A stretch of 64,000 bases of DNA from Lytechinus variegatus (taxonomy: Eukaryota > Echinodermata > Echinoidea > Temnopleuroida > Toxopneustidae): assembly GCF_018143015.1 (NCBI RefSeq), contig NC_054740.1:14648797-14712796 (forward strand), given 5' to 3'. Each line of letters opens with the position of its first letter. Positions within the stretch are counted from its first letter, which is position 1. The notes under the pieces were generated by a model. The model did not search any database. It saw only the letters and a program-made list of their open reading frames with translations, and had not been told where the DNA came from. The translations under genes were made by a program, and so were the position numbers. Positions 1 to 62,189 of the stretch are shown here, piece by piece.

Positions 1-1092
1 ATTGTTAAGGAATTTTTTATATAATGTATTTTTCTTTCTGATGTCTCTTAATAATTCAGGAGTAATCCATGGCTTACGTATAAACGTTTTCTTCTTCTTT
101 TGGAAAATCAAAGGCAAATTTTTATCATACAAAATGTTAAACTTATTCAAAAATATATCATAGGCACTATTTACTTCATTGCAAGAATACACTGATGACC
201 AATCAGTATCATAAAGTTCTTTTTGTAAATTTCTCACACCAGCATCAGTAATTTTACGTCTATATGTGTTATCGGTCCTTTGCTGATTATTTGAAAGCAA
301 GTCAGTTTTATTTAATATAAGAAATACAGGTAAATGATCAGTTATATCAACAGAAAAAATACCACTTTCCACATTTATTGCAAAGGCGTTTAAGAAAATA
401 TTATCAATAAGAGATGCTGTATTTAAAGTAATACGGGTGGGTTGATTAATGACAGGATGTAGACCAAAAGAAGAGTTCGTATTTAAAAACGAATTTGTGT
501 TATCTTCTTTTTCTTTCATCATATCAATATTAAAATCCCCTGTCATGATAATGTCTCTCTTATCATTACCAAGTATGCTAAGAGTTTGAGAGTAAAAATT
601 AATGAATGATATAACATCAGTACTTGGCTTTCTATAAAAAACACCTATGGTCAAATTATCCTTTTCATGTCTAAATAAGTCAATAAATAAGTATTCACAT
701 GTTTCTGTATCTGCAGACAGAAAAATGTCATTTCTTACAGAGAAATTTATATTAGTTTCAATGAAAAAACAAACGCCACCACCTCTGCCTGTTATTCTAT
801 CAAAGTTTACAAAATCATAACCATCTAAGTGAAATGGAATTAAAGGTGTGCCGGATATCCATGTTTCTGATATGGCTATTACCGAAAACCTATTTTCTAG
901 AGTAGACAAGAAATCTGAAATGCTATCAAAGTTTTTATGAAGACTACGCGCATTGAAATGTATCAGACTGAATTCATTATTATTTTGAAAATGTACATTG
1001 AACTCTGACGGTGTATAATAATTAGAAGTATATGCATTTGATAAACAGTTTACATTAAGTTCTGGATCAAGATCAACAAGAGGATTACTCAT
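1..1092 (-). CDS. LINE ORF2, endonuclease domain (partial)
   Basis: The frame is open for 364 codons from ATG at 1092-1090 to the left edge. It reads as an endonuclease/exonuclease/phosphatase (APE-like) domain. Visible motifs in order are FNARSLHKNFDS (metal-site Asn region), AISETWI (catalytic Glu), YRKPSTDV, GDFNID (Asp/Asn pair), LIDNIFLN and TDHLPVFL (the terminal Asp-His pair, with Thr in place of the more usual Ser). In this family the domain nicks target DNA for target-primed reverse transcription. The C-terminal end passes into the charged linker that normally precedes the reverse transcriptase, which is outside the window. No internal stop is seen. Confidence 0.88.
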   Translation of the reverse strand, partial: MSNPLVDLDPELNVNCLSNAYTSNYYTPSEFNVHFQNNNEFSLIHFNARSLHKNFDSISDFLSTLENRFSVIAISETWISGTPLIPFHLDGYDFVNFDRITGRGGGVCFFIETNINFSVRNDIFLSADTETCEYLFIDLFRHEKDNLTIGVFYRKPSTDVISFINFYSQTLSILGNDKRDIIMTGDFNIDMMKEKEDNTNSFLNTNSSFGLHPVINQPTRITLNTASLIDNIFLNAFAINVESGIFSVDITDHLPVFLILNKTDLLSNNQQRTDNTYRRKITDAGVRNLQKELYDTDWSSVYSCNEVNSAYDIFLNKFNILYDKNLPLIFQKKKKTFIRKPWITPELLRDIRKKNTLYKKFLNN

Positions 1093-1524
1093 ATATATAA
1101 AAATGTGTTTACTTTGATGTTATCATAGACTCTGAATAAAATACTTAAGAAATATATAAAGAAGAGGATTGCAGCTTTGCATATTGTAATATTGTAACAA
1201 CTCGTGTATATGTAATAAAAAAAAGACGAAAGTTGGTTCATAAGTCCTTTCATCACATTAAAATCACAAAAATGTAAACTTTGAGAAGTTTGACATATAA
1301 AACAATACAATACAAAAATATGATTGAACAGCATAACATAATAAAATTTTCAATCAATACAAGTAACAATAATGACAACAGTTTTTTAACTCCAAATGAG
1401 GAATATATATCACAAAATGTTTTACAAAATGAGAATGGTAAAAGTTCACTTTAACTTTATAAATAAAGAGAAAGTTCCTTCCAGGAGATTTAATAGTTTG
1501 TTTTTCTTCCACTTTCTATTATTC

Positions 1525-2271
1525 TCATAGTTTTCTCAGATCATCTTCATTTCTTATGACCTTTTTCTTATGTTCATTTCCTTTCAGTAGAGCGATTATT
1601 CTACCATCATTGCTCCAGGCAGCTTCAACATCGGGATGATTTTTCGTGGAGGTCAGGAGTTTTTGATTCGTAGTTGTAAGATCTTCAACTATCGCTCTTT
1701 TTTGTCCTTTCAATTTTCTTCTGTTTGCTATCACTTCTTGTCGTTTTCGATAGGACTTGAATTTCACTATGATTCCGCGTGGTGATTTAAGTGCCGATCC
1801 GGCTTCTGAAGCTTGCTCTGGTGGACCAACTCGGTGGCTTCTTTCTATGTCTTCAAGCTTTAGGTCGACCTTGAGGGTATCCTTGACAATCTTCATCACT
1901 ATATTGTCTGTACTTTCACCTTTTCTCTCAGGACATCCAAAAAATCGGAGACAGTTTCGACGTGAATATTGTTCTTGTGCGTTGATGCTGTGGCTGATCC
2001 CTTTCATCTTGTCTGTCTGCTCATTTACTCTTTTCTTTAGGCCTTCTATTTCCTTTTCTTTGGTAGCTTTGCTGATCTGTAAGTCCATTATCTCTGATTC
2101 CTGCTTTTCAATAGTTTCTTCCAGGACTCTAATCTTCTTGTTAATTGAGTCATGAACCAATGCAATAAAGCCTTTGTTCTGTAGGAGATCCTTAATGACT
2201 TCTTCTGTGAGAGTTGAGTTTTCCTTTGAACGTGATCTGGTGGTCACAGGAGAGGTTGACATGCTGGACAA
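1525..2271 (-). CDS. LINE ORF1 RNA-binding protein
   Basis: A 248-residue ORF of the type found as ORF1 in L1-like and related LINEs. A short Ser/Thr/Arg-rich N terminus is followed by a coiled coil at about residues 40-100 (heptads rich in Glu, Lys, Leu and Ile). The block EQYSRRNCLRFFG then introduces an RRM-like domain (NIVMKIVKDTL, SHRVGPP, RGIIVKFKSYRKRQEV), and a C-terminal region follows. In this family the protein trimerises through the coiled coil and coats the element's RNA. It sits 432 bases upstream of ORF2 in the same orientation, as expected for a two-ORF LINE. The frame is intact. Confidence 0.85.
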   Translation of the reverse strand: MSSMSTSPVTTRSRSKENSTLTEEVIKDLLQNKGFIALVHDSINKKIRVLEETIEKQESEIMDLQISKATKEKEIEGLKKRVNEQTDKMKGISHSINAQEQYSRRNCLRFFGCPERKGESTDNIVMKIVKDTLKVDLKLEDIERSHRVGPPEQASEAGSALKSPRGIIVKFKSYRKRQEVIANRRKLKGQKRAIVEDLTTTNQKLLTSTKNHPDVEAAWSNDGRIIALLKGNEHKKKVIRNEDDLRKL

Positions 2272-2402: not shown

Positions 2403-2556
2403 GCCCCACACGAGGGGAAAAATATTGTTTTTTCCCAAGTAGAAGTGTATTTAGAGGAAGTGTACATGGATGTAGGGGAAAAAATTTAAACATTAGACAT
2501 TAAGATATTAAAGTTAAGTAGGCCTACATGCATTTCTATGGCTTAAATATATGTTA

Positions 2557-3238
2557 AGCCCCTTTTACACCTTCACGGAAGCAACACAGATCATCCCGGA
2601 TTGTCAATCTGGGGTCATCCGTGTACAATCCGGGACTACCGTGTACACTCCGGCTACTCATCCGGCGCCATCCTTGATGTACCGGCATGTCCGGAAGAAA
2701 AATTGAACATGTTCAATTTTTCATCCCGGAGTACACGGACTGATAATCCTCCGTGTTCATCCTCGTAGCCTCCTTGTACATCCGTGTAGCTACCGAATGC
2801 ATCCGGGAGGCTCCTTGTAAGAACCGGGTGATCCTTGTTGATACCGGCTTTATCCGGGGTCAAATGTTTGTATTGTTTGCGTACATGAACAATAGTCCGT
2901 ATTCATAACCAAGCACGAGCATGCTCCAGATGCTGCAAAGAGGGACGAAACTTCATTCTAGCAAGATGCCGGCGACAAGAAGTGGTAAGGTCCGTGTAAA
3001 GACCCAGTAACATCCGTGATCATCCGGGTATTCCGTGTTGGCTCCGGGAGCATATCAAACAGGATCCCTATTGCTACCTTGCCTATCCTTGTAGACTCCG
3101 TACTTTTCCGTACATATCCGTGTTAATAACCAGTTAACTCCGTACTCACTCCGGGAATGCTAGGAAAATACAAATTTGGCACCCCGGATCATCACGGACT
3201 GAGATCCGTGTTGCATCCGTGAAGGTGTAAAAGGGGCT
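2557..3238. mobile_element. 682-bp TIR element, PIF/Harbinger-like MITE
   Basis: The element begins AGCCCCTTTTACACCTTCACGG and ends with its reverse complement (CCGTGAAGGTGTAAAAGGGGCT). It is flanked by TTA on both sides (2554-2556 and 3239-3241), a 3-bp duplication of the kind made by PIF/Harbinger transposases. No transposase ORF is present, so it would be non-autonomous. The interior is GC-richer than its surroundings and is packed with short words such as CCGTG, CCGGG and CCTTGT every 10-15 bases. Superfamily assignment rests on the 3-bp duplication only. Confidence 0.75.
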
Positions 3239-3508
3239 TTACACCTCACAAAATATAAAATGACCTACCACTCAATCCTTGCAGACTCAATGTAATCACA
3301 TTATTTAAAACTGAACGACAAAAATGGATCTATGAAGGGGGGGGGGGGGGTAGGGTATCCTTTGGAAAAATCAAGTAGGGGTAGGGGTGATTGATGATAT
3401 ACTCTCATGATCATTGTACTTTGTTTATCACTTGTTCATGTATGATGTTTATTTCATTATTTTGTTTGAAAATTTAGTTATATAAATAATTCAAATAATT
3501 GTTGTACA

Positions 3509-3784: not shown

Positions 3785-6700
3785 GTCTTGACGTAAAAGA
3801 TTATGCTACGACTCAGTATTGCTACTTTGGTCCCGAATCCAAGTATGAAAATAAACTGAATGCAGCGTTTGTGATCAAATCGGGCGTCCAGAAAAACTTT
3901 CCCATCCACGGACCATGGAGAGACAAAGTCCTCAAAGATTTCCTTGTCAAATATGCAACAAAGGAGGAGGAAACAGGTAGGTCAGGGTCTTGTATCAAAA
4001 AGCATAGCAAACGATCATTAACATGATTATAATTGATAGCACTGACCACAGTGTACAATAAGTCATGAAAATCAGTTGTACAATCGGTCAATAGGCTTTG
4101 TGATACAGGACTTGGATGTAAGATATGCATTGATGTATTTATAGCTACTACATGTACTAGTGCTTTCCTCGTGTAAATGAGATTTGGTAGTGGCTATGTC
4201 GAGGGTTCACAAACAGGAGGCTGTAACTGGAGGAAATATGATTTCGAGAAGAGCAGATTGAATTCTTTGCCAAGCAAATTTATTGAGTTAAGTTTTTCAT
4301 GACAGCCAATAGGAATGCTAAAGCTTATGGTTTTCAGAATTACTTAATAGTGTTACTTCACAATTTTGTACCAAAATCTCCAGACAGACCCTATATCAAT
4401 TTTGTTTGCTTCTACATATGCTGTTAATGTATTGTCTTGTAATTTATATGCTGCTTCAAAAGGGGTGATGTAGAAACAAGAACATAATATACAGTTGTGC
4501 TAAAAGTTAGTGAACCCCATCACAAAATGCAATCTTTCATGCTGAGTGATGAATGGAAACAACAACACTGCAATGTTCTGTCAGCCAAGAGAAACAAACT
4601 TTATTGAATGTAAAATTTTACCACCTGACTTCTCAATTAGATATCTGAAACTTGCCGAACTTGAACAGGTTAAATATGGTCATAAATATATTCATTCTGG
4701 TCGTGAGGTTCACTTACTGTTGAGCACCCTGTATGTCCTTACAGACTTTACACTGATATCTGTCTTGTCTTTCATATACTTTCTCATGACAGGGAGCAAT
4801 GATATGACTGATATGCATGCTGTCATCCAGGTCGTTCCCATCGTTTCTCTCTATGCTGGCCAGCCAGAGATGCTAGAGAAGGTGGAAGAAGCAGTCTCCG
4901 TTACCATGACAGCGGATGAAGCCATTGTTCACAGCCTGGTAGCCGCTAGGTGAAAGAAATTTGAAATGCACAAAGTCCACTCAGTATCAAAGGCAAGACC
5001 TGTGGTCTGTAACACAAAGCTTAACGATGATCGTAGAGCTTTTCCATTTGATTGCATTGACTACAATATACAATCAATCATGAAAATCAAGTGTAAGATT
5101 AATCACTAATCTTTGTGTTACCAGACCTTGGTCTTGGAGGATTATTATAAACCTCTGATCCTCCGGCGAAGTCGCTGAAAGACCAATGACTGCAATGATT
5201 AATTTTCTCTCAACCGATCGGATGCAAGAATTTGCAGTAGCGTACAAATATAACATATATCGATGAAACCTACTGATAAAATTCTTCATGAGACTTTTCT
5301 CAAGCATTTAGCTTTGCTTTGCTATCAATTTAATTCACGACTGGTGTAAATCAACATTCAAAGTATTAGTATTGGTTCTTTTGACACATTAACATTTGCT
5401 ATTGCTCCAGGCAAATAAGAACTATAGTAGTCTGCCCTTGAAGTTAAATTTCTTGGGACCTCGGGAATATGCTCTACATGTAGATGTAGGTGAAATTTGA
5501 CTAACAGAAGGTAAATAAAATATGTTTTGCACAATCAAGTCTAAAAATTGATTTGACTTGGGTGAATATTCAACTTATAGAAGATCAACTTATAATGAAG
5601 AGTTGACTGTACTTCAAAGGTATTGTATAAATATCAATGATGCCCACACCAAATAATGGATACATTTCTTTCATTTCCTTTTAATCCAATGCAGGATTCT
5701 GGAATACTTCATCTTGAACGGAAGCAATGGCAATGTCCTAGATGATGTCATCAAGGAGCTTAGAGATCCCAACAGGACATGTCCACATTCTTTAGACAAG
5801 GCCGTCATAGGATTCTTGGAGAAGGTCAAGAGGAACCTTACTGTTCCGCACTTCAATGCAGCCACCAAAGTCTTCAAAAATAACTGATGTAAGTTAGGTT
5901 TCAAATATTCTATATTCTGTATCTCTTATTTGAAGAAAATATTCAAAAAGTTTGCATTTTTGTGTTTTCCAGCCTTTAATTAAGAAACTGCCATTGTACT
6001 TGTAGTTGTCGAAAATAGGCCAAGGCTGAAATAATACCACCTATTAATTGAAAAAAAAGTCTTGTATTGCAAGAAAAGAATCAGATCACTTCATTCCATT
6101 TTTAAGACTCCACCCACTGTACATTTTCTTATGTATTTTATTGTTTTTTGCAATTTCTCATGTATTTCTTTGTTTTTTGACCTTTTGTTTTTCATTATTT
6201 TTTCCAATATAATTTGTTGGGGACTCTTCTGTGATCATAAAAAGCATGAAATAAATACATTTAGACCAGCAAAACTAAAAATAATCATACATTTATGAAT
6301 TTTGGTTGAAAACACAATTTGCATTGACTTTGTAAACGAAATCACGTTTTTGAGCAATTTTCGGTCTGACATACACTTACATACATGTAATGTTACGTGA
6401 TTTCGGAACCAGGTACCCGGGTGAAAAAATTGCGCAAGACTTGAAAATAAAAAATCAGCGAGCGGCGCGGTCCAAAAATTTTCGCGCGGCAAAAATATTG
6501 CGCGATACGTTGAGGGGGGGCCTCTGAGGCCCCCCCTTCCCCGGCCTAGGTAGGGTTAATGAACTGAATGCACGAGCGCTGAGAGGCAGCTCAAGCTAAA
6601 GCCGGGTAATAATAATAATAACATTGCGCCTTGGAATAAATTGTTTCTAGATAGATGGCGCTATTATTTTTATTACTACATTGTTCTCAAAAGAACTAAA

Positions 6701-7738
6701 GAACTGTTTGAGGGCTCAGCATATGCATATGGGAGTAACAGCGATCTTATAGGAATTTTGGGTCAAAGGTCAGGTCATAGATGTTATTACACACATTGAA
6801 GTAAGAAGTTGATTGGATTTTATTTCAGATTTGCCCGGGGCGTTTCAGTCCGCCCTACATGCCCTGTTTAACAGCACCGACTATGCTGAGGGAATCCGAC
6901 TGACCTTGAAGGCTGGGGGCTGTAACGCAAGCCGTGCTGGATTCATAGGAGCTTGTCTTGCAGCACGGGTGAGTCACAAAGCCACAATGTCAAAACCACT
7001 TAAAATAGCACCATGTACCCCATTGCAACTCTGCATCCATATCCAGGATAAAATATTTCAATATGTAGTAATCATTGATACAATGATGAGTAATTTTTTT
7101 CCCTAATCTTGATTAATTGAATTATTCATCAAGAATATCACAGGTGATTACAATGAATCTTAAGAATACCTTGACAGGATAGCCCATGAAAGCTGAAAGG
7201 CTTATTTCCAACGGGGGTCATATTACAGCATTTATTCCAAAGTATTTAGCAATAATTGTATGCCTTTAGTATACTTCCATGCATTTTCTTTTTAATAAAA
7301 ATTAAATAACCTTCATATTAACCCCCCCCAAAAAAAAAATAATTAATTTCTGATTGATAAAAGGATACAATATCCTTTACATATCTCCATGGTAGGAAAT
7401 TCACTATGTTCACACTGCAGCGCCCCTTTCTGGAAAGCAGATATGGAATTCCTTTCTTATCGGTTAGGCGATTCCACAAATTATACATTTCCTAAAACAC
7501 TGTTTTTGCTTTGGTAACGTTAAGGTGAGATTTAAGGTCGCACTTTGCGAAACAACTTCCAGACATAACTTGAACTTGGAATTGTTTTACATTGTGTTCA
7601 TTGCTTTCAATTTCAATTTGGTTTTTATTCTAGAATGGCATGGAGAACATTCCTGAGGATTGGAAAGCCAAGACATTGTGCACCGAGAAAGCAATGGAAC
7701 TTTGTGAACAACTGAAGGATCTTAGGAAGGATTATTAA
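3785..7738 (+). CDS. selJ: Selenoprotein J-like, 3' five exons (ADP-ribosylglycohydrolase / J1-crystallin fold)
   Basis: Five exons: 3785-3976, 4793-4949, 5695-5888, 6829-6968 and 7634-7738. All have AG/GT borders and consistent phases (1,2,1,0) and encode 261 residues to TAA at 7736-7738. Family marks are GPESKYENKLNAAF, DMTDMHAVIQVVPIVSLYAG, YLPGAFQSALHALF and GGCNASRAGFIGACLAA. The last block is where true ADP-ribosylglycohydrolases carry the metal-binding GGDTDT; here it reads GGCN, as in J1-crystallins, so hydrolase activity is doubtful. The frame meets TGA at 5885-5887, exactly where the family has Cys (NNxYLPGAF), and coding resumes in phase for 81 residues. This fits selenoprotein J with selenocysteine at that site. 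The N-terminal third lies left of the window beyond the LINE. No clear SECIS was found by eye. Confidence 0.85.
5885..5887 (+). other. selJ: In-frame TGA, probable selenocysteine codon
   Basis: The TGA sits at the end of the third visible exon, one base before the donor GTAAGT at 5889. The split codon T|AT (Tyr) and the LPGAFQ motif follow in the next exon. As I remember the family, the residue here is Cys in cnidarian homologues and Sec in fish. Intact splice sites and conserved coding on the far side argue for readthrough rather than a pseudogene stop. Confidence 0.75.
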
Positions 7739-8180
7739 ACTTATCTCTCATTCCAATAATACAATAGAAGTACATAACACAATCCGTAATGCTTGTTTCT
7801 TAAATCTATGTTTGAAAATTTCATTTGTTGTCAATTTTTAATCTAAATAAATCTGTTTTATATTATCAGAGATAAATATATAATTATTATAAAATAATCA
7901 TAACAGATTTCATGTGCCTTGTTTTCATAAATGCAAAATTGTAATTGATCCAATTAAGTGTACTTATGTATGAACATTATATGCTTATAAAAAAATAATG
8001 TACACATATATCTAGACTACCCGTGTTAGTTACGATACTATAGTAAATATAAAGTCTAGGCCATATAACATATAAACACCTCTTGATTTCAGGTGACGAG
8101 GCAATCGAGATGTAATTGCTATCTTTTCTGTGCCGGAATGGCCTTGGTTATGGCCAAAATTAGTTGATAATAACAGTAAT
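7739..8180 (+). other. Presumed 3' UTR of the SelJ-like gene
   Basis: AT-rich sequence after the TAA. The first AATAAA is at 7846-7851. A selenoprotein mRNA must carry a SECIS hairpin in its 3' UTR. I looked for an ATGA...AA...GA quartet with a 10-12 bp helix and saw none that is convincing, so transcription may extend further right or a spliced UTR may exist. Confidence 0.4.
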
Positions 8181-8390
8181 AATATATTTCATCACTTGTA
8201 CATCACATATCCTGTACCATTTAATGTCTTTTTATGCTTCGAAAGTGATATGTGGTTGCGTTTGCCCAGCAAGCCTTTTACAGCACAATTGCATTTCAAG
8301 GTATAGTTTCCTGCCAGGTTCCAATTTACTTCAGCTAGATCTAGTCTAGCACAATGTGGATCAATTTTTTTGCTGAAGAAAAATATGTAA

Positions 8391-8460
8391 TGACCGGGCT
8401 TTGAACCCACGACCCTCTGTTTCAAAGTCAGAAGACTAAATCCATTGGGCCACAACACTT
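8391..8460 (-). repeat. tRNA-related SINE head
   Basis: Read on the minus strand, GTGGCCCAATGG resembles a pol III A box and GTGGGTTCAAAGCCC a B box, spaced as in a tRNA. The acceptor stem does not pair, so this is a tRNA-derived SINE rather than a tRNA gene. The element extends leftwards an unknown distance. Confidence 0.55.
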
Positions 8461-9414
8461 GACATTTGCAATGTCTATGAACCTCAAAGTTGTATAGATT
8501 CACAGAACTTTCAGGGCAAAGCCACATTCTAGCAGTATGGATTATGACTGCTACAAGTTTGATATGAAGGACACAAAATCCAATGTAATATACAGTTGAT
8601 GTAGATTTATTCTAATCAGTCAGAGCTGTGAAAAACTTGTTGTGCGGACAACTTAATGTTTGGCAGTCAAAAGTAGACAATAGATAACCAAGGGATTGAA
8701 AGAGACCAAAGGAAATCCTCCCTCTCAAAATCAAATCTTTGCAAAAGTGACAAAACTCAAATTGAAATAGTTGTTTTGGTTGTTTAATACGGTTGTGTGT
8801 AGCTCAAAGTGAAATCACAAGGGCGCAACAAAAGGCATGGGAAGCCAGGCGCAGACCCAGCTGAAACCAGTACGGGGGCAGCCACATGAATATAAGTATC
8901 TCAGGCCATTAAAAAGAGCACTGTGGCATTCATTAAATCCCAGAACAACTAAATGTTGTGATAATGAATTCATATGTAAAAAGTGCAAATTTCTTTAAGT
9001 GATTGTGACTGCCATCTACTATGATTTTCAATACCAACCTTTTTTTCAATACCTCATCAAAATGAATTTTTCTTTATGTCTGCACCATGCTAAATTACTA
9101 CCTGAATGTGTGCTTCTTTCTTCTGTATCTTTATCAGTACTTGTACGGGTATTGTACCTACACTCAGCAATATGCACATGAAATATAAAGCAATATCTCA
9201 GATATGTTTTCATGTCTAGAGTTGGATGATATGTCATGACTAAATACTTTTGAAAGTTGGTTGTCACATTGATGGAATTTCTTTATCATGAAGACACATT
9301 TGATAACTAGTTTTATATTTCTGTCATGCATTATTAAAGAAGTCATTACCAAAACTAATATATTATCTTACATGTATGTAGCATATTACTATTTAATGAC
9401 CAAATTTGTCTGTT

Positions 9415-9570
9415 TGTCGTTTGTAAGTTAAGAGTGACTTTAAGAACGACTGGTGATCCTTTCTTGTGGTAAATGGCATAATAAATTGGCGATGTTTTAG
9501 TACGTAAGAAAAGATCACCAGTCGTTCTTGAAGTTGCTCCTAACTTACGAATAGCTTTATGAAATGGCAC
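9415..9570. repeat. Short foldback with GATCACCAGTCGTTCTT arms
   Basis: AAGAACGACTGGTGATC near 9440 returns inverted as GATCACCAGTCGTTCTT near 9515, with TAAGTTA-type outer arms. Related sequence recurs at about 39885-40020 (CACCAGTC...CGTAACTTACGATCAGC) and about 59570-59670, so this is a dispersed MITE family. Confidence 0.65.
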
Positions 9571-9603: not shown

Positions 9604-10238
9604 CTGAGTTGAGGCCAAAAGTTTACATACTGTACACCCATGGAATTCAGTGAAATTTGTTCGCTTGCCAAACATCGCAACATTTACTATATCTTCAGAA
9701 ACATAAGTACTACAATGATGAATTTGGTATCAAATGATAGAGCGTATTAAGCTCTTTCACATGACTAATTTGGATGCCCTTGGGATTAAAGTATCAGTTG
9801 GAATTTTCTTTGAAAAAAAAGGTGATATTTGTGCCAAATGTACTCTATTCTCAAACATCGTTTCATAGAAATATGTAAATGTCAAATCTGTGATTTATAT
9901 TACATTTTTGATCATGACATGTCACCACTGAACAAAACCATGTAATCTGAAGTGTTTGTGTTGAGAAGTAACTAGCACAAATATGAAATGTTTTTGTCAA
10001 GTTTTTTATATTTGATTTGTCTAAAATGAAGATTTTAGAGGAAAAATGACACCCATGAAATATTTTCAGCTCCTGATGACAAAGCAATGTGATGAAGGGC
10101 ATGACATATACCCATTTGTGTGATATCAAATTCATCATGATAGCACAAATATTTTATAAGATGCAGTAAATTTTATGTTTGGCAAGTGTCAACTTTTCTT
10201 TTAATTTCCTGGGTGTATGTGAACTTCTGGCCTCACTG
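9604..10238. mobile_element. Tc1/mariner-type foldback MITE (635 bp)
   Basis: The left end CTGAGTTGAGGCCAAAAGTT and the right end (read inverted) CAGTGAGGCCAGAAGTTCAC are terminal inverted repeats of Tc1 style. TA lies on both sides (9602-9603 and 10239-10240). The inversion continues inward (for example GATGAATTTGGTATCAAATG near 9716 and its inverse near 10120), so the whole element can fold back. No transposase ORF is present. Confidence 0.8.
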
Positions 10239-10374
10239 TATATATATAGTATATCTATGTGTGTGAAATAGAAGTATAAAAGAAATAAAAGATCTGTACT
10301 TTCCATAGCTAAGGTAGTTGAAGAATTTTGATTCCATGTTTTCTTTTACTGTTAAAGTCGATCTCTGAAGAATG

Positions 10375-10450
10375 GTGTGGTGGTACAGTTGGTAGAGCAT
10401 CCATCTCACAACCAGGAGGTCAGATTTCAAGCCCTGGCTGCATCAGACCA
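10375..10450 (+). repeat. tRNA-derived SINE head
   Basis: GGTGTGGTGGTACAGTTGGT (A-box region) is followed by GGTCAGATTTCAAGCCC (B-box region) at tRNA-like spacing. The acceptor stem is not preserved and pseudo-tRNA sequence continues into a unique tail, so this is a SINE rather than a functional tRNA. Confidence 0.55.
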
Positions 10451-11180
10451 AAATGATGTTAAAAGATAGGAGTTGCTGCTACCCCCTGTTGTGGTGTTTG
10501 ACGATTTAAGGGGTGCAGGTGCTGCACAGTGGTTGCCGGGGCCAATAGTTTTGGTAGAAAGAATTTTTAAAGGATTCCTATTTTCTAATTTCTATTTCGA
10601 AAAATATATGGATTATTTGAATGAGAGTGAGTGATGATAGTGATTTTTTACCCCCTGCTCTAGCGACTGAGCTTTCGTGCTTCCCTCATGTGGACAAGAC
10701 AGGGGAAGCAAGGGTTGGGGGGGTGGCAAGATAAAATTGGCTATGCTCTCAAATTTCTCTAGTTCTTATTTTCACCCAACAGAGAGGATGGATTACTCCA
10801 CTCAAACATATAGACAAGAATAATGAATCAGATGTTTGTCTTAATTATTATTTTAATACAATTTTATCATGTAGTTGAAAAGAAATTAATACATAATTCA
10901 CTCCAAGTTTCCTAGATGGTTTAATACCAGTTGTAAGTTGCATGTAGGCCCTATACAAGAAAATGTAGGCCTATTTAAATTCATAATTGGTATAAAATTA
11001 GACTGAAAAATCATCTTGAGAATCGTCCTTATTACAATCCTATGAGTTTTAAATCCTTGGATAGATGGAGTGATTGTGGATTATTTCAAATCTAGGATAT
11101 TAAATTGTTTACAGTATAAAAACTCTTTATTTCTGTGGAGTCAAATTTGACTAGGAAATTTGCAAGCTGTGCATGGGAGT

Positions 11181-11283
11181 CAGTGGCGGACTGTGGCCGG
11201 AGGAGACAAAGCAATGGAGGGGCAACAATGCTGTGCCCCTCCCCTCCAATGCTTTGTCTCCTCCGGGTCACGGTCCGCCACTG
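11181..11283. mobile_element. hAT-type mini-MITE, copy 1 (103 bp)
   Basis: Begins CAGTGGCGGAC and ends GTCCGCCACTG. The arms pair over most of the length (GGAGGAGACAAAGCAATGGA against TCCAATGCTTTGTCTCCTCC). An exact 8-bp duplication ATGGGAGT flanks it at 11173-11180 and 11284-11291, which matches hAT-type insertion. A sister copy lies at 56899-57012. Confidence 0.9.
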
Positions 11284-11700
11284 ATGGGAGTCGACACTGT
11301 TTCGAGTCAAAGTTACTTGTTTCTGAGTCAAATATTGACTAAAAATTGAGTGATACTTTTGCTGATGCCACTCCACTCTTGAGTTAATTTCATTTGAAAT
11401 CTGACTCAATTCAAATAGGAATAGATTTGACTCCCTACTGGCACTGGTGAGAGTCAAACTTGACTCAAAGAAATAAGAGTGTATACATGTACATGATCTG
11501 ACATTCATAATACACTCTAAAAAGATGCAGATATTGCTTATTCAAAAATATTTTCACTTTCAATTTTAAGAAATAACAAGTAAATCTATCACAGTATACA
11601 TATAAGCAGTCAGGGGCGGAGCCACAGAGAGGTTGGGGACACGCCCCCACATTGTGAAAGGGGGGGCGGGGAGGATAGAAGTGATAAAGTAAATGATTAA

Positions 11701-46778: not shown

Positions 46779-46850
46779 CTCCCGTGCCGGGAATCGAACC
46801 CGGGCCGCGTGGGTGAAAACCACGAATCCTAACCACTAGACCACACGGGA
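46779..46850 (-). tRNA. tRNA-Glu (UUC)
   Basis: On the minus strand the gene starts TCCCGTGTGGTCTAGTGGTT (A box TGGTCTAGTGG), has anticodon loop TTTTCAC with anticodon TTC, then B box GGTTCGATTCC and CACGGGA pairing with the 5' TCCCGTG over 7 bp. The discriminator base is G and there is no intron. A T-run pol III terminator follows at 46773-46765. It lies 321 bp upstream of the AGA start codon, in opposite orientation. Confidence 0.97.
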
Positions 46851-60677: not shown

Positions 60678-62189
60678 TCAACTTCTAGATTTATCAAAAG
60701 TAACAGCAGCATATGGAGTGACAACATCAACATTATCAATGGACACAATGGTAAATGCAGATGTTTCAATTTCAGAGAGGGGCCCAGCTTGTGCACGTTT
60801 ATCATGAATATCCTGTAAGAATCGATCTAATGTACTTTCAGAGCAAGAAAATCCTATTTGATTTAAGATCTTTAACAACTTTGTTGAATGAGACATTTTC
60901 TTGACACAGTTGGCAACAATGACATGCAAAGGGTAGTTGTTCTCATCATTTATGATGAATTGCAACAAGAGTATTGTAGCAACTCTTCTCTGTTTCCTTC
61001 TGTGACTGGCCTGCCCTTTTTCAGATGGAAACTGTACATATTCTTTAACAATATTCATGTCAGATTGCTTGAAAAATTTGATCTCATCCTGAGTAGATGT
61101 TATGATACAAATAATGTTCCAAATAAGGGGGGTGAATAAATCAAAAGCAGTCTCAAATTTGAATTCAGCTAAGGACATTGGGTTCGCAATAAAATGAGCG
61201 GTTATGTCCCTTCCTTGTTTGCGTAATAATTCATTGCATTCCAGTGCAATTTTTCTGAACTGCATATTACAATCTGATTCGGTATTAGTGAAGGAAAAAG
61301 ATTCATCATCCATCATCTCAATATCATCACTTGATTGATTACTTTGGACCTTGTTGAGTTTTGAGTGTGACAAATGCCAAGCGCATAGAATATCTTCATG
61401 TGATAAATGTGAAGGATAATAAAACAAACCATATTTGCGTGCAATTCTGTGCGTAGACAAAAGATCACCAAACTTATGAATTATCCTACCGTTAAGATAT
61501 GAAGGGCTTTTCTTCATATGTTCATAATACATATCTTCCTTGCATATTATTCTCAGTTTTGAAACATAGTATTTGTATACAGTTAAAAGCAAAAAACATT
61601 TATCTTTTTCACATAATGTACATACATACGAATAAACATCATACAACACTTTGTCTGGTATTGTTTCCTGAGTTGTCTTGTTAATTTCATGTTGTGCAGC
61701 TTCAATTTTCAGCATTTTTTGTAGTTCATCAATTGATGAAGCTGGTTTATTCATTTGTTTCAAAGTGTATCTGTAACATGAACTGCATAAAATACTCTCG
61801 GCATTAAGAGACAGATTTTCATTTATATTGTTAAGTCTCTCTTTATCTATGTCAACCATCGTTGCACATGAATACCTTCTGTCTTCCGTTTTAATATAAT
61901 CTTCACAAACAGAACAGCATTCCCAATTCTGGAACCGTGACAGCTGTGTGCGGTGCTTTATACATAATGATAATGTTTCCGGGATTGAAATACATTTTAA
62001 GGAAAAACAATTATTGAATGATTCAAGAGTGCAATTACAATCTCTCTGAGATGTGTCAGTGCACATATCAAAAAACGATAAAAAACAAACACTCCTTTCT
62101 TTCTTCCTATGTTTTTGTGGAGTGTACATGGGATCCTTCAATTTTTTTGTGTATTTTGCCATGCATTTAGCACAAATACAACTTTCCAT
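60678..62189 (-). CDS. 503-residue ORF of the disrupted Cys-rich gene
   Basis: Starts MESCICAKCMAKYTKKLKD. The N-terminal half holds many Cys in CxxC pairs (CICAKC, CCSVC, CSSC, CTLC), probably zinc ligands. The C-terminal half (FDLFTPLIWNIICIITS, RRKQRRVATILLLQF, FSCSESTLDRFLQDIHDKRA, TIVSIDNVDVVTPYAAVTF) is helical then acidic. The upstream frame stays open without an ATG back to about 62350, so this Met is not necessarily the real start. The TGA that ends it is probably a nonsense change. Confidence 0.65.
   Translation of the reverse strand: MESCICAKCMAKYTKKLKDPMYTPQKHRKKERSVCFLSFFDMCTDTSQRDCNCTLESFNNCFSLKCISIPETLSLCIKHRTQLSRFQNWECCSVCEDYIKTEDRRYSCATMVDIDKERLNNINENLSLNAESILCSSCYRYTLKQMNKPASSIDELQKMLKIEAAQHEINKTTQETIPDKVLYDVYSYVCTLCEKDKCFLLLTVYKYYVSKLRIICKEDMYYEHMKKSPSYLNGRIIHKFGDLLSTHRIARKYGLFYYPSHLSHEDILCAWHLSHSKLNKVQSNQSSDDIEMMDDESFSFTNTESDCNMQFRKIALECNELLRKQGRDITAHFIANPMSLAEFKFETAFDLFTPLIWNIICIITSTQDEIKFFKQSDMNIVKEYVQFPSEKGQASHRRKQRRVATILLLQFIINDENNYPLHVIVANCVKKMSHSTKLLKILNQIGFSCSESTLDRFLQDIHDKRAQAGPLSEIETSAFTIVSIDNVDVVTPYAAVTFDKSRS

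What the first reader, a model, noticed from the sequence alone, without database searches (positions are those of the whole stretch)
5695..7738. Selenoprotein J in an echinoderm: in-frame TGA where the family has Cys
The exon 5695-5888 ends ...KNN-TGA-T|GTAAGT. The next exon supplies AT-TTG-CCC, giving NNxYLPGAFQSALH, the family motif in which x is Cys or Sec. Coding then continues through two correctly phased exons to a TAA 81 residues later, including the conserved GGCNASRAGFIGACLAA. SelJ has, as I recall, a very patchy distribution (ray-finned fish and sea urchin, Cys forms in cnidarians). An ordinary gene caller would truncate this gene at the TGA.
Basis: partly seen in the sequence, partly recalled or inferred. 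Interest (0 to 1): 0.9.

Follow-up and report, generated by a model that had tools for sequence, protein, structure and literature searches.

The report
Sea urchin selenoprotein J gene
This sea-urchin gene carries an internal TGA that is very probably read as the rare amino acid selenocysteine rather than as a stop, so it makes the known selenium protein J; the reading is right but the family is not new, and databases often cut such genes short at that codon.

Summary
Five in-phase exons (3785-3976, 4793-4949, 5695-5888, 6829-6968, 7634-7738) encode 261 codons of an ADP-ribosylglycohydrolase-family protein, interrupted only by TGA at 5885-5887. It is 94% identical (over 69% of the query) to a Lytechinus pictus database protein that stops exactly there. 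By a rough pattern, 79 of 188 retrieved homologues end at that residue, including urchins, starfish, molluscs, Lingula, Owenia, amphioxus and fish; others have Cys (hemichordates, salmonids, an Aplysia and two amphioxus proteins). The 81 residues after the TGA are as conserved as those before it in 7 of 9 homologues compared. The missing piece is a form-2 SECIS-like stem-loop at 9217-9285, 1.49 kb past the TAA, with AUGA, AAA and UGAU correctly placed. It is below Rfam's cut-off (17.1 against 35 bits); 27 of 5000 shuffles do as well by a descriptor written after the candidate was seen. The wider point is that Sec-type SelJ looks common in starfish and molluscs, hidden by broken gene models. 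The first ~80 residues lie outside the window. No RNA or protein evidence was available.

The parts
3785..3976 (+). SelJ coding exon (first one inside the window)
   Evidence: AG/GT splice sites; 95% identical to L. pictus P0001 residues 81-145
4793..4949 (+). SelJ coding exon
   Evidence: AG/GT splice sites; matches P0001 residues 144-197 at 93%
5695..5888 (+). SelJ coding exon carrying the in-frame TGA
   Evidence: AG/GT splice sites; matches P0001 residues 193-260 at 91%
5885..5887 (+). in-frame TGA, predicted selenocysteine codon
   Evidence: aligned with Cys in hemichordate, salmonid, amphioxus and Aplysia homologues; many homologous gene models end or jump here
6829..6968 (+). SelJ coding exon downstream of the TGA (YLPGAFQSALH...GGCNASRAGFIGACLAAR)
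   Evidence: 66% identical to Acanthaster P0003 over 50 columns
7634..7738 (+). last SelJ coding exon, ends in TAA 7736-7738
   Evidence: 48% identical to Acanthaster P0003 over 27 residues
9217..9285 (+). SECIS candidate, form 2 (AUGA at 9226-9229, AAA at 9242-9244, UGAU at 9270-9273, small extra hairpin)
   Evidence: full-length Rfam SECIS_1 alignment, 17.1 bits, below the cut-off of 35; descriptor scans; folds
9333..9338 (+). possible poly(A) signal ATTAAA just past the SECIS candidate
   Evidence: motif scan only
9480..9485 (+). possible poly(A) signal AATAAA, inside the loop of an inverted repeat
   Evidence: motif scan; repeat 9420-9551

Best explanation
This is the selenoprotein J (SELENOJ) gene of a sea urchin, probably a Lytechinus or close relative. 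The ribosome reads the UGA at 5885-5887 as selenocysteine, directed by a form-2 SECIS element about 1.5 kb into the 3' untranslated region, and goes on to the TAA at 7736-7738, giving a protein of about 342 residues with Sec at about residue 261 (length and position by analogy with L. pictus P0001). Shown here: the frame, the splice sites, conservation on both sides, Cys or model break at the site in homologues, and the SECIS-like geometry. Inferred: that the SECIS lies in the same transcript and works through the usual Sec machinery. The protein should have the ADP-ribosylglycohydrolase fold but lacks the acidic residues of the metal-binding motifs of catalytic relatives, so it is probably not an ordinary metal-dependent hydrolase. 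A redox or structural (crystallin-like) role is inferred and untested.
For: Open frame over five spliced exons with TGA as the only internal stop. Pfam ADP_ribosyl_GH 78.4 bits. Close homologues named Selenoprotein J or crystallin J1. L. pictus, S. purpuratus (two), Diadema, Patiria and Asterias proteins end at the residue before the site (the starfish matched by eye). Acanthaster's model lacks exactly two residues there and Bradybaena's exactly one. An unnamed protein, P0015, has Trp there, as expected if TGA was translated with a code that reads it as Trp (inference). Cys in three hemichordate proteins, salmonids, two amphioxus and one Aplysia protein. Identity is higher after the site than before it in 7 of 9 homologues with a C-terminal part. 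SECIS_1 full-length alignment, 17.1 bits; the only descriptor hit with at least 10 pairs in 64 kb, both strands; 27 of 5000 shuffles do as well. The model of the Cys homologue P0055 (pLDDT 92.5) matches MJ1187, DraG and ARH3 structures.
Against: The SECIS candidate is below Rfam's gathering score (17.1 against 35), is one of seven weak matches in its 121 bases, and was not listed when longer stretches were scanned. Its folding energy is no better than that of shuffles (103 of 200 fold at least as well). The descriptor was written after the candidate was seen, so 27 of 5000 is optimistic. An earlier AATAAA at 7846 could end the transcript before the SECIS. No RNA, no other individual and no orthologous DNA could be read: that the homologues' stops are TGA is inferred. 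None of the first 143 proteins retrieved holds the letter U, so a C in a vertebrate record could be a converted U. Some fish models show S, A, V, P, I or L at the aligned site, which I take for mis-spliced models but did not test.
Confidence: 0.94

Rival explanations
1. The TGA is a real stop and the gene encodes a shortened protein; the downstream exons are a remnant or belong to another isoform.
For: Database models of four urchin proteins stop here; an early poly(A) motif at 7846 precedes the SECIS candidate.
Against: The 81 downstream codons are open, correctly spliced and more conserved than the upstream part in 7 of 9 homologues with a C-terminal part (slightly less in the other two, both fish). 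The truncated L. pictus model matches only positions 1-193 of the 287 of the Pfam domain.
Confidence: 0.03
2. The TGA is a sequencing or assembly error, or a rare allele, of a Cys codon (TGC/TGT).
For: One base change separates TGA from TGC or TGT, and Cys forms exist in related phyla.
Against: Separate gene models from L. pictus, S. purpuratus, Diadema, Patiria and Asterias end at the same residue, and a SECIS-like element is present.
Confidence: 0.01
3. The TGA is passed by ordinary stop-codon read-through with another amino acid, not by Sec insertion.
For: The SECIS candidate is weak by Rfam score.
Against: Cys at the same residue in homologues is the mark of Sec, and read-through would not predict a form-2 SECIS-like element 3' of the gene.
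Confidence: 0.02

Closest known systems
Selenoprotein J (SELENOJ/SelJ) of ray-finned fishes and amphioxus
   Same: Same domain, same Sec/Cys position, same downstream LPGAFQ and GGC-xx-SR motifs; near-complete fish proteins 40-43% identical over 95-97%
   Different: Echinoderm sequence; 5' exons not in the window; the SECIS here is a candidate only
SelJ of sea urchin (Castellano et al. 2005, recalled; the paper is not held)
   Same: As I recall, the founding paper already reported the Sec form in sea urchin
   Different: This locus is probably another species, a Lytechinus or close relative; its exons and a SECIS candidate are mapped here
J1-crystallins
   Same: Databases name many of these homologues crystallin J1A/B/C
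   Different: I saw no jellyfish protein in my listings; not compared
ADP-ribosylglycohydrolases (MJ1187, DraG, ARH3)
   Same: Same Pfam family; the model of a homologue has the same fold
   Different: GGDTDS of MJ1187 aligns with GGCNAS; WTDDT aligns with a stretch lacking those Asp residues, in a weak alignment of 8.4 bits

Membership tests
Selenoprotein J | ADP-ribosylglycohydrolase/J1-crystallin-type domain | tested here: met
   PF03747 78.4 bits; hits include proteins named selenoprotein J and crystallin J1
Selenoprotein J | In-frame TGA at the position that is Cys in homologues | tested here: met
   TGA 5885-5887; Cys in hemichordate, salmonid, amphioxus and Aplysia homologues
Selenoprotein J | Conserved coding sequence after the TGA | tested here: met
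   45 of 80 identical to Acanthaster, 43 of 77 to Glandiceps P0006
Selenoprotein J | SECIS element with AUGA/AA/UGA geometry 3' of the coding region | tested here: met
   9217-9285, full geometry, but 17.1 bits against a gathering score of 35; 27 of 5000 shuffles do as well. A candidate by geometry, not a proven SECIS
Selenoprotein J | SECIS in the same mRNA as the TGA | not testable with these tools
   no RNA data
Selenoprotein J | Sec present in the protein | not testable with these tools
   needs mass spectrometry or selenium labelling
Metal-dependent ADP-ribosylglycohydrolase (catalytic) | Asp-rich metal-binding motifs (TDD and GGDxDT/S; their role is recalled) | tested here: not met
   GGCNAS in place of GGDTDS; no matching Asp pair at WTDDT, in a weak alignment and read on homologues, since that exon is outside the window
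Metal-dependent ADP-ribosylglycohydrolase (catalytic) | All-helical ARH fold | tested here: met
   model of homologue P0055 against PDB: 1t5j TM 0.70/0.85, prob 1.00; the window protein itself was not folded

The most novel reading that the evidence does not exclude
The Sec form of SelJ is the ancestral and widespread state across bilaterians (urchins, starfish, amphioxus, chiton, gastropods, bivalves, a brachiopod, an annelid), with scattered Cys relatives, and its reputed patchy distribution is largely an annotation artefact because gene models stop or jump at the UGA.
Probability: 0.7. Interest if true: 0.45.

Novelty: new member of a known kind. Interest (0 to 1): 0.3.

Why it matters
It shows where gene models of urchin SelJ are cut short, gives a mapped SECIS candidate for an urchin SelJ, and suggests that SelJ is commoner in marine invertebrates than two papers state (PMC3473315, passages: amphioxus the only one of six invertebrates in its table; PMC3828610, one passage: fish and amphioxus). 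It is otherwise an ordinary, expected selenoprotein.

Tried and rejected
Rfam scans of 16 kb and 1.9 kb up to E 10, and of the whole window at gathering level, list no SECIS; a 121-base scan does, below the cut-off. Of the 163 raw candidates of the first loose scan, 25 rows were printed; I set aside the one at 8391 because it looks by eye like a tRNA-derived repeat, the one at 10013 for its 4-base loop, and the rest by eye for poor helices or misplaced AA. Folding energy as a test of the SECIS was uninformative. A comparison of the SECIS candidate with phage records found nothing and was not a useful search. A search of the window's own genome for 5' exons, paralogues and other urchin SECIS elements as controls did not complete, so there is no positive control for the SECIS descriptor. 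The founding SelJ paper is not held. The homologue classes come from regular expressions and are rough: of 188, 79 end at the site, 22 Cys, 60 with a C-terminal part but an altered or skipped site, 27 other; four of the 27 (P0053, P0055, P0065, P0070) carry Cys, so at least 26 of 188 show Cys.

Full report
What is there. The window holds about the last three quarters of the coding part of a spliced gene on the + strand. Reading the sequence directly and in scripts, five exons are in phase: 3785-3976, 4793-4949, 5695-5888, 6829-6968 and 7634-7738, with AG acceptors and, for the first four, GT donors. Joined, they read 261 codons with one internal stop, TGA at 5885-5887, and end in TAA at 7736-7738. 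The first ~80 residues of the nearest homologue have no convincing match in the window (best E 0.069), so the 5' exons most likely lie outside it.

What the protein is. Pfam gives ADP_ribosyl_GH at 78.4 bits. A search of about 5.8 billion proteins gave 38 hits; the best is a Lytechinus pictus protein, 94% identical over 69% of the query, then S. purpuratus (81% over 69%) and Acanthaster (53% over 97%). Many fish hits are named Selenoprotein J. The window therefore comes from a sea urchin, most likely Lytechinus or a close relative (inference from the identity).

The TGA position. The L. pictus protein, two S. purpuratus proteins and the Diadema protein end at ...FKNN, the residue before the TGA. 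Acanthaster's model lacks exactly two residues there. A profile search (255 hits, 120 listed) and a search with the Acanthaster protein (95 hits) brought the total to 188 proteins. By regular expression 79 of 188 end at the site, 22 carry Cys, 60 have the C-terminal part but a skipped or altered site, and 27 are other; four of the 27 carry Cys. The enders include the starfish Patiria and Asterias, Lingula, Owenia, Liolophura, three Haliotis, Nucella, Babylonia, Littorina, Pomacea, Plakobranchus (whose source names it selenoprotein j), Aplysia, Biomphalaria, amphioxus and Latimeria. The land snail Bradybaena lacks exactly one residue, FKNN-YLPEA. Cys occurs in hemichordates (Glandiceps twice, Ptychodera), salmonids, two amphioxus proteins and an Aplysia protein; also in one protein whose label, Chlat1, I take for the alga Chlorokybus (recalled) and in several unnamed ones. 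No U occurs in the first 143 proteins retrieved, so a C in a vertebrate record might be a converted U; two of the salmonid-like C forms (P0042, P0045) come only from the unnamed source lgn, where I expect no such annotation. Some fish models show S, A, V, P, I or L at the aligned site; I take these for mis-spliced models. One unnamed protein, P0015, has Trp at the site, as expected if TGA was translated with a code that reads it as Trp. Cys against a broken model at one residue is the pattern expected of selenocysteine. PMC12822975 (passages) describes these annotation errors in vertebrates ('Stop codon' and 'Skipped') and puts SELENOJ among the three families with the worst status in Ensembl, under 1% well annotated.

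Selection beyond the TGA. Identity after the site against before it: Acanthaster 45 of 80 against 90 of 179; Mactra 41 of 76 against 72 of 175; Glandiceps P0006 43 of 77 against 71 of 179; Glandiceps P0055 37 of 76 against 67 of 173; amphioxus P0065 35 of 80 against 67 of 169; P0015 36 of 79 against 53 of 124; P0034 36 of 81 against 36 of 150; salmon P0040 33 of 80 against 79 of 179; fish P0013 33 of 78 against 71 of 154. It is higher after the site in 7 of 9 and slightly lower in the last two. This speaks against decay after a real stop.

SECIS. A loose scan of the 3' region (163 raw candidates) showed one with canonical geometry. Rfam's SECIS_1 model aligns end to end at 9217-9285 with 17.1 bits, E 0.47 for 121 bases and 4227 families, below the gathering score of 35; six other weak matches, also below their cut-offs, lie in the same 121 bases. 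For one family and the sense strand of the 1762-base 3' region that is about 8e-4 by my own scaling. Its elements are AUGA, an 11-base helix arm with one mismatch, unpaired AAA, a small extra hairpin (form 2) and UGAU. A descriptor finds it, one weaker sense-strand site in 64 kb and one weaker site on the other strand. In 5000 dinucleotide shuffles of 7739-9500, 111 have any hit and 27 have one with at least 10 pairs; an earlier run of 500 gave 1% with any hit. The descriptor was written after the candidate was seen, and no known urchin SECIS was at hand as a positive control. Against it: the longer Rfam scans do not list it, and its energy is average for its composition (z 0.04, 103 of 200 shuffles fold at least as well). 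Keeping the SECIS-specific bases unpaired costs 2 kcal/mol, -14.9 against -16.9. Poly(A)-like motifs follow at 9333 and 9480, but an earlier AATAAA at 7846 precedes it.

How it most likely works. UGA is decoded as Sec under direction of the SECIS (inferred, from established knowledge of eukaryotic Sec insertion). A model of the Cys homologue P0055 (mean pLDDT 92.5) matches solved ADP-ribosylglycohydrolases (1t5j, DraG, ARH3). GGDTDS of MJ1187 aligns with GGCNAS here, and its WTDDT with a stretch of the family profile that lacks those Asp residues, in a weak alignment of 8.4 bits; these are metal-binding motifs as I recall, so metal-dependent hydrolysis is unlikely. A Sec-dependent redox role, or the structural role suggested for fish lens (PMC11591929, one table row seen), remains possible and untested here.

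What is known. PMC3473315 (passages) lists SelJ in amphioxus only among six invertebrates; PMC3828610 (passage) says fish and amphioxus; [quoted passage not shown] PMC2375036 (passages) calls the occurrence narrow; PMC7539508 (passages) reports SELENOJ in algae, including a two-Sec form; PMC9087173 (passages) notes the homology of SelJ to the ARH proteins. The founding paper (PNAS 2005) is not held; I recall that it reported sea urchin and fish Sec forms and cnidarian Cys forms. Searches for SelJ or selenoprotein J with sea urchin, echinoderm and mollusc, and for selenoprotein with Lytechinus, list no paper whose title or shown abstract treats this gene or mollusc SelJ; the six Lytechinus papers listed were not opened. 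The window gene is thus a new member of a known kind, and the broad set of mollusc and starfish models that end at the site is the part that goes beyond what I could read.

Noticed in passing
window 2552-3243: Element of about 690 bases with 41-base, 93% complementary terminal inverted repeats, a transposon-like insertion upstream of the first SelJ exon in the window.
   Followed up: partly
window 9420-9551: Inverted repeat with 46-base arms, 87% complementary; its loop holds the AATAAA at 9480, so that poly(A) motif may have come with a repeat element.
   Followed up: partly
window 11179-11285: Strong GC-rich hairpin that matches several microRNA families far below their cut-offs; probably a palindromic repeat, not a microRNA.
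   Followed up: partly
window 1525-2271 (-) and about 1-1100 (-): An ORF of 248 aa and a broken stretch that look by eye like ORF1 and the endonuclease of a non-LTR retrotransposon; the ORF has no Pfam match, the stretch was not tested.
   Followed up: partly
window 8380-8460 and 10370-10440: Two stretches that look by eye like tRNA-derived SINEs; no tool was run on them specifically.
   Followed up: no
window 46779-46850 (-): tRNA gene match above Rfam's cut-off, 62.2 bits.
   Followed up: no
window 60678-62189 (-): Long uninterrupted ORF of 503 aa without a Pfam match.
   Followed up: partly
P0076 and P0122 (fish): Fish gene models join SelJ to a nucleotidyltransferase or eIF2B-like domain, probably run-through annotation of a neighbouring gene.
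   Followed up: no
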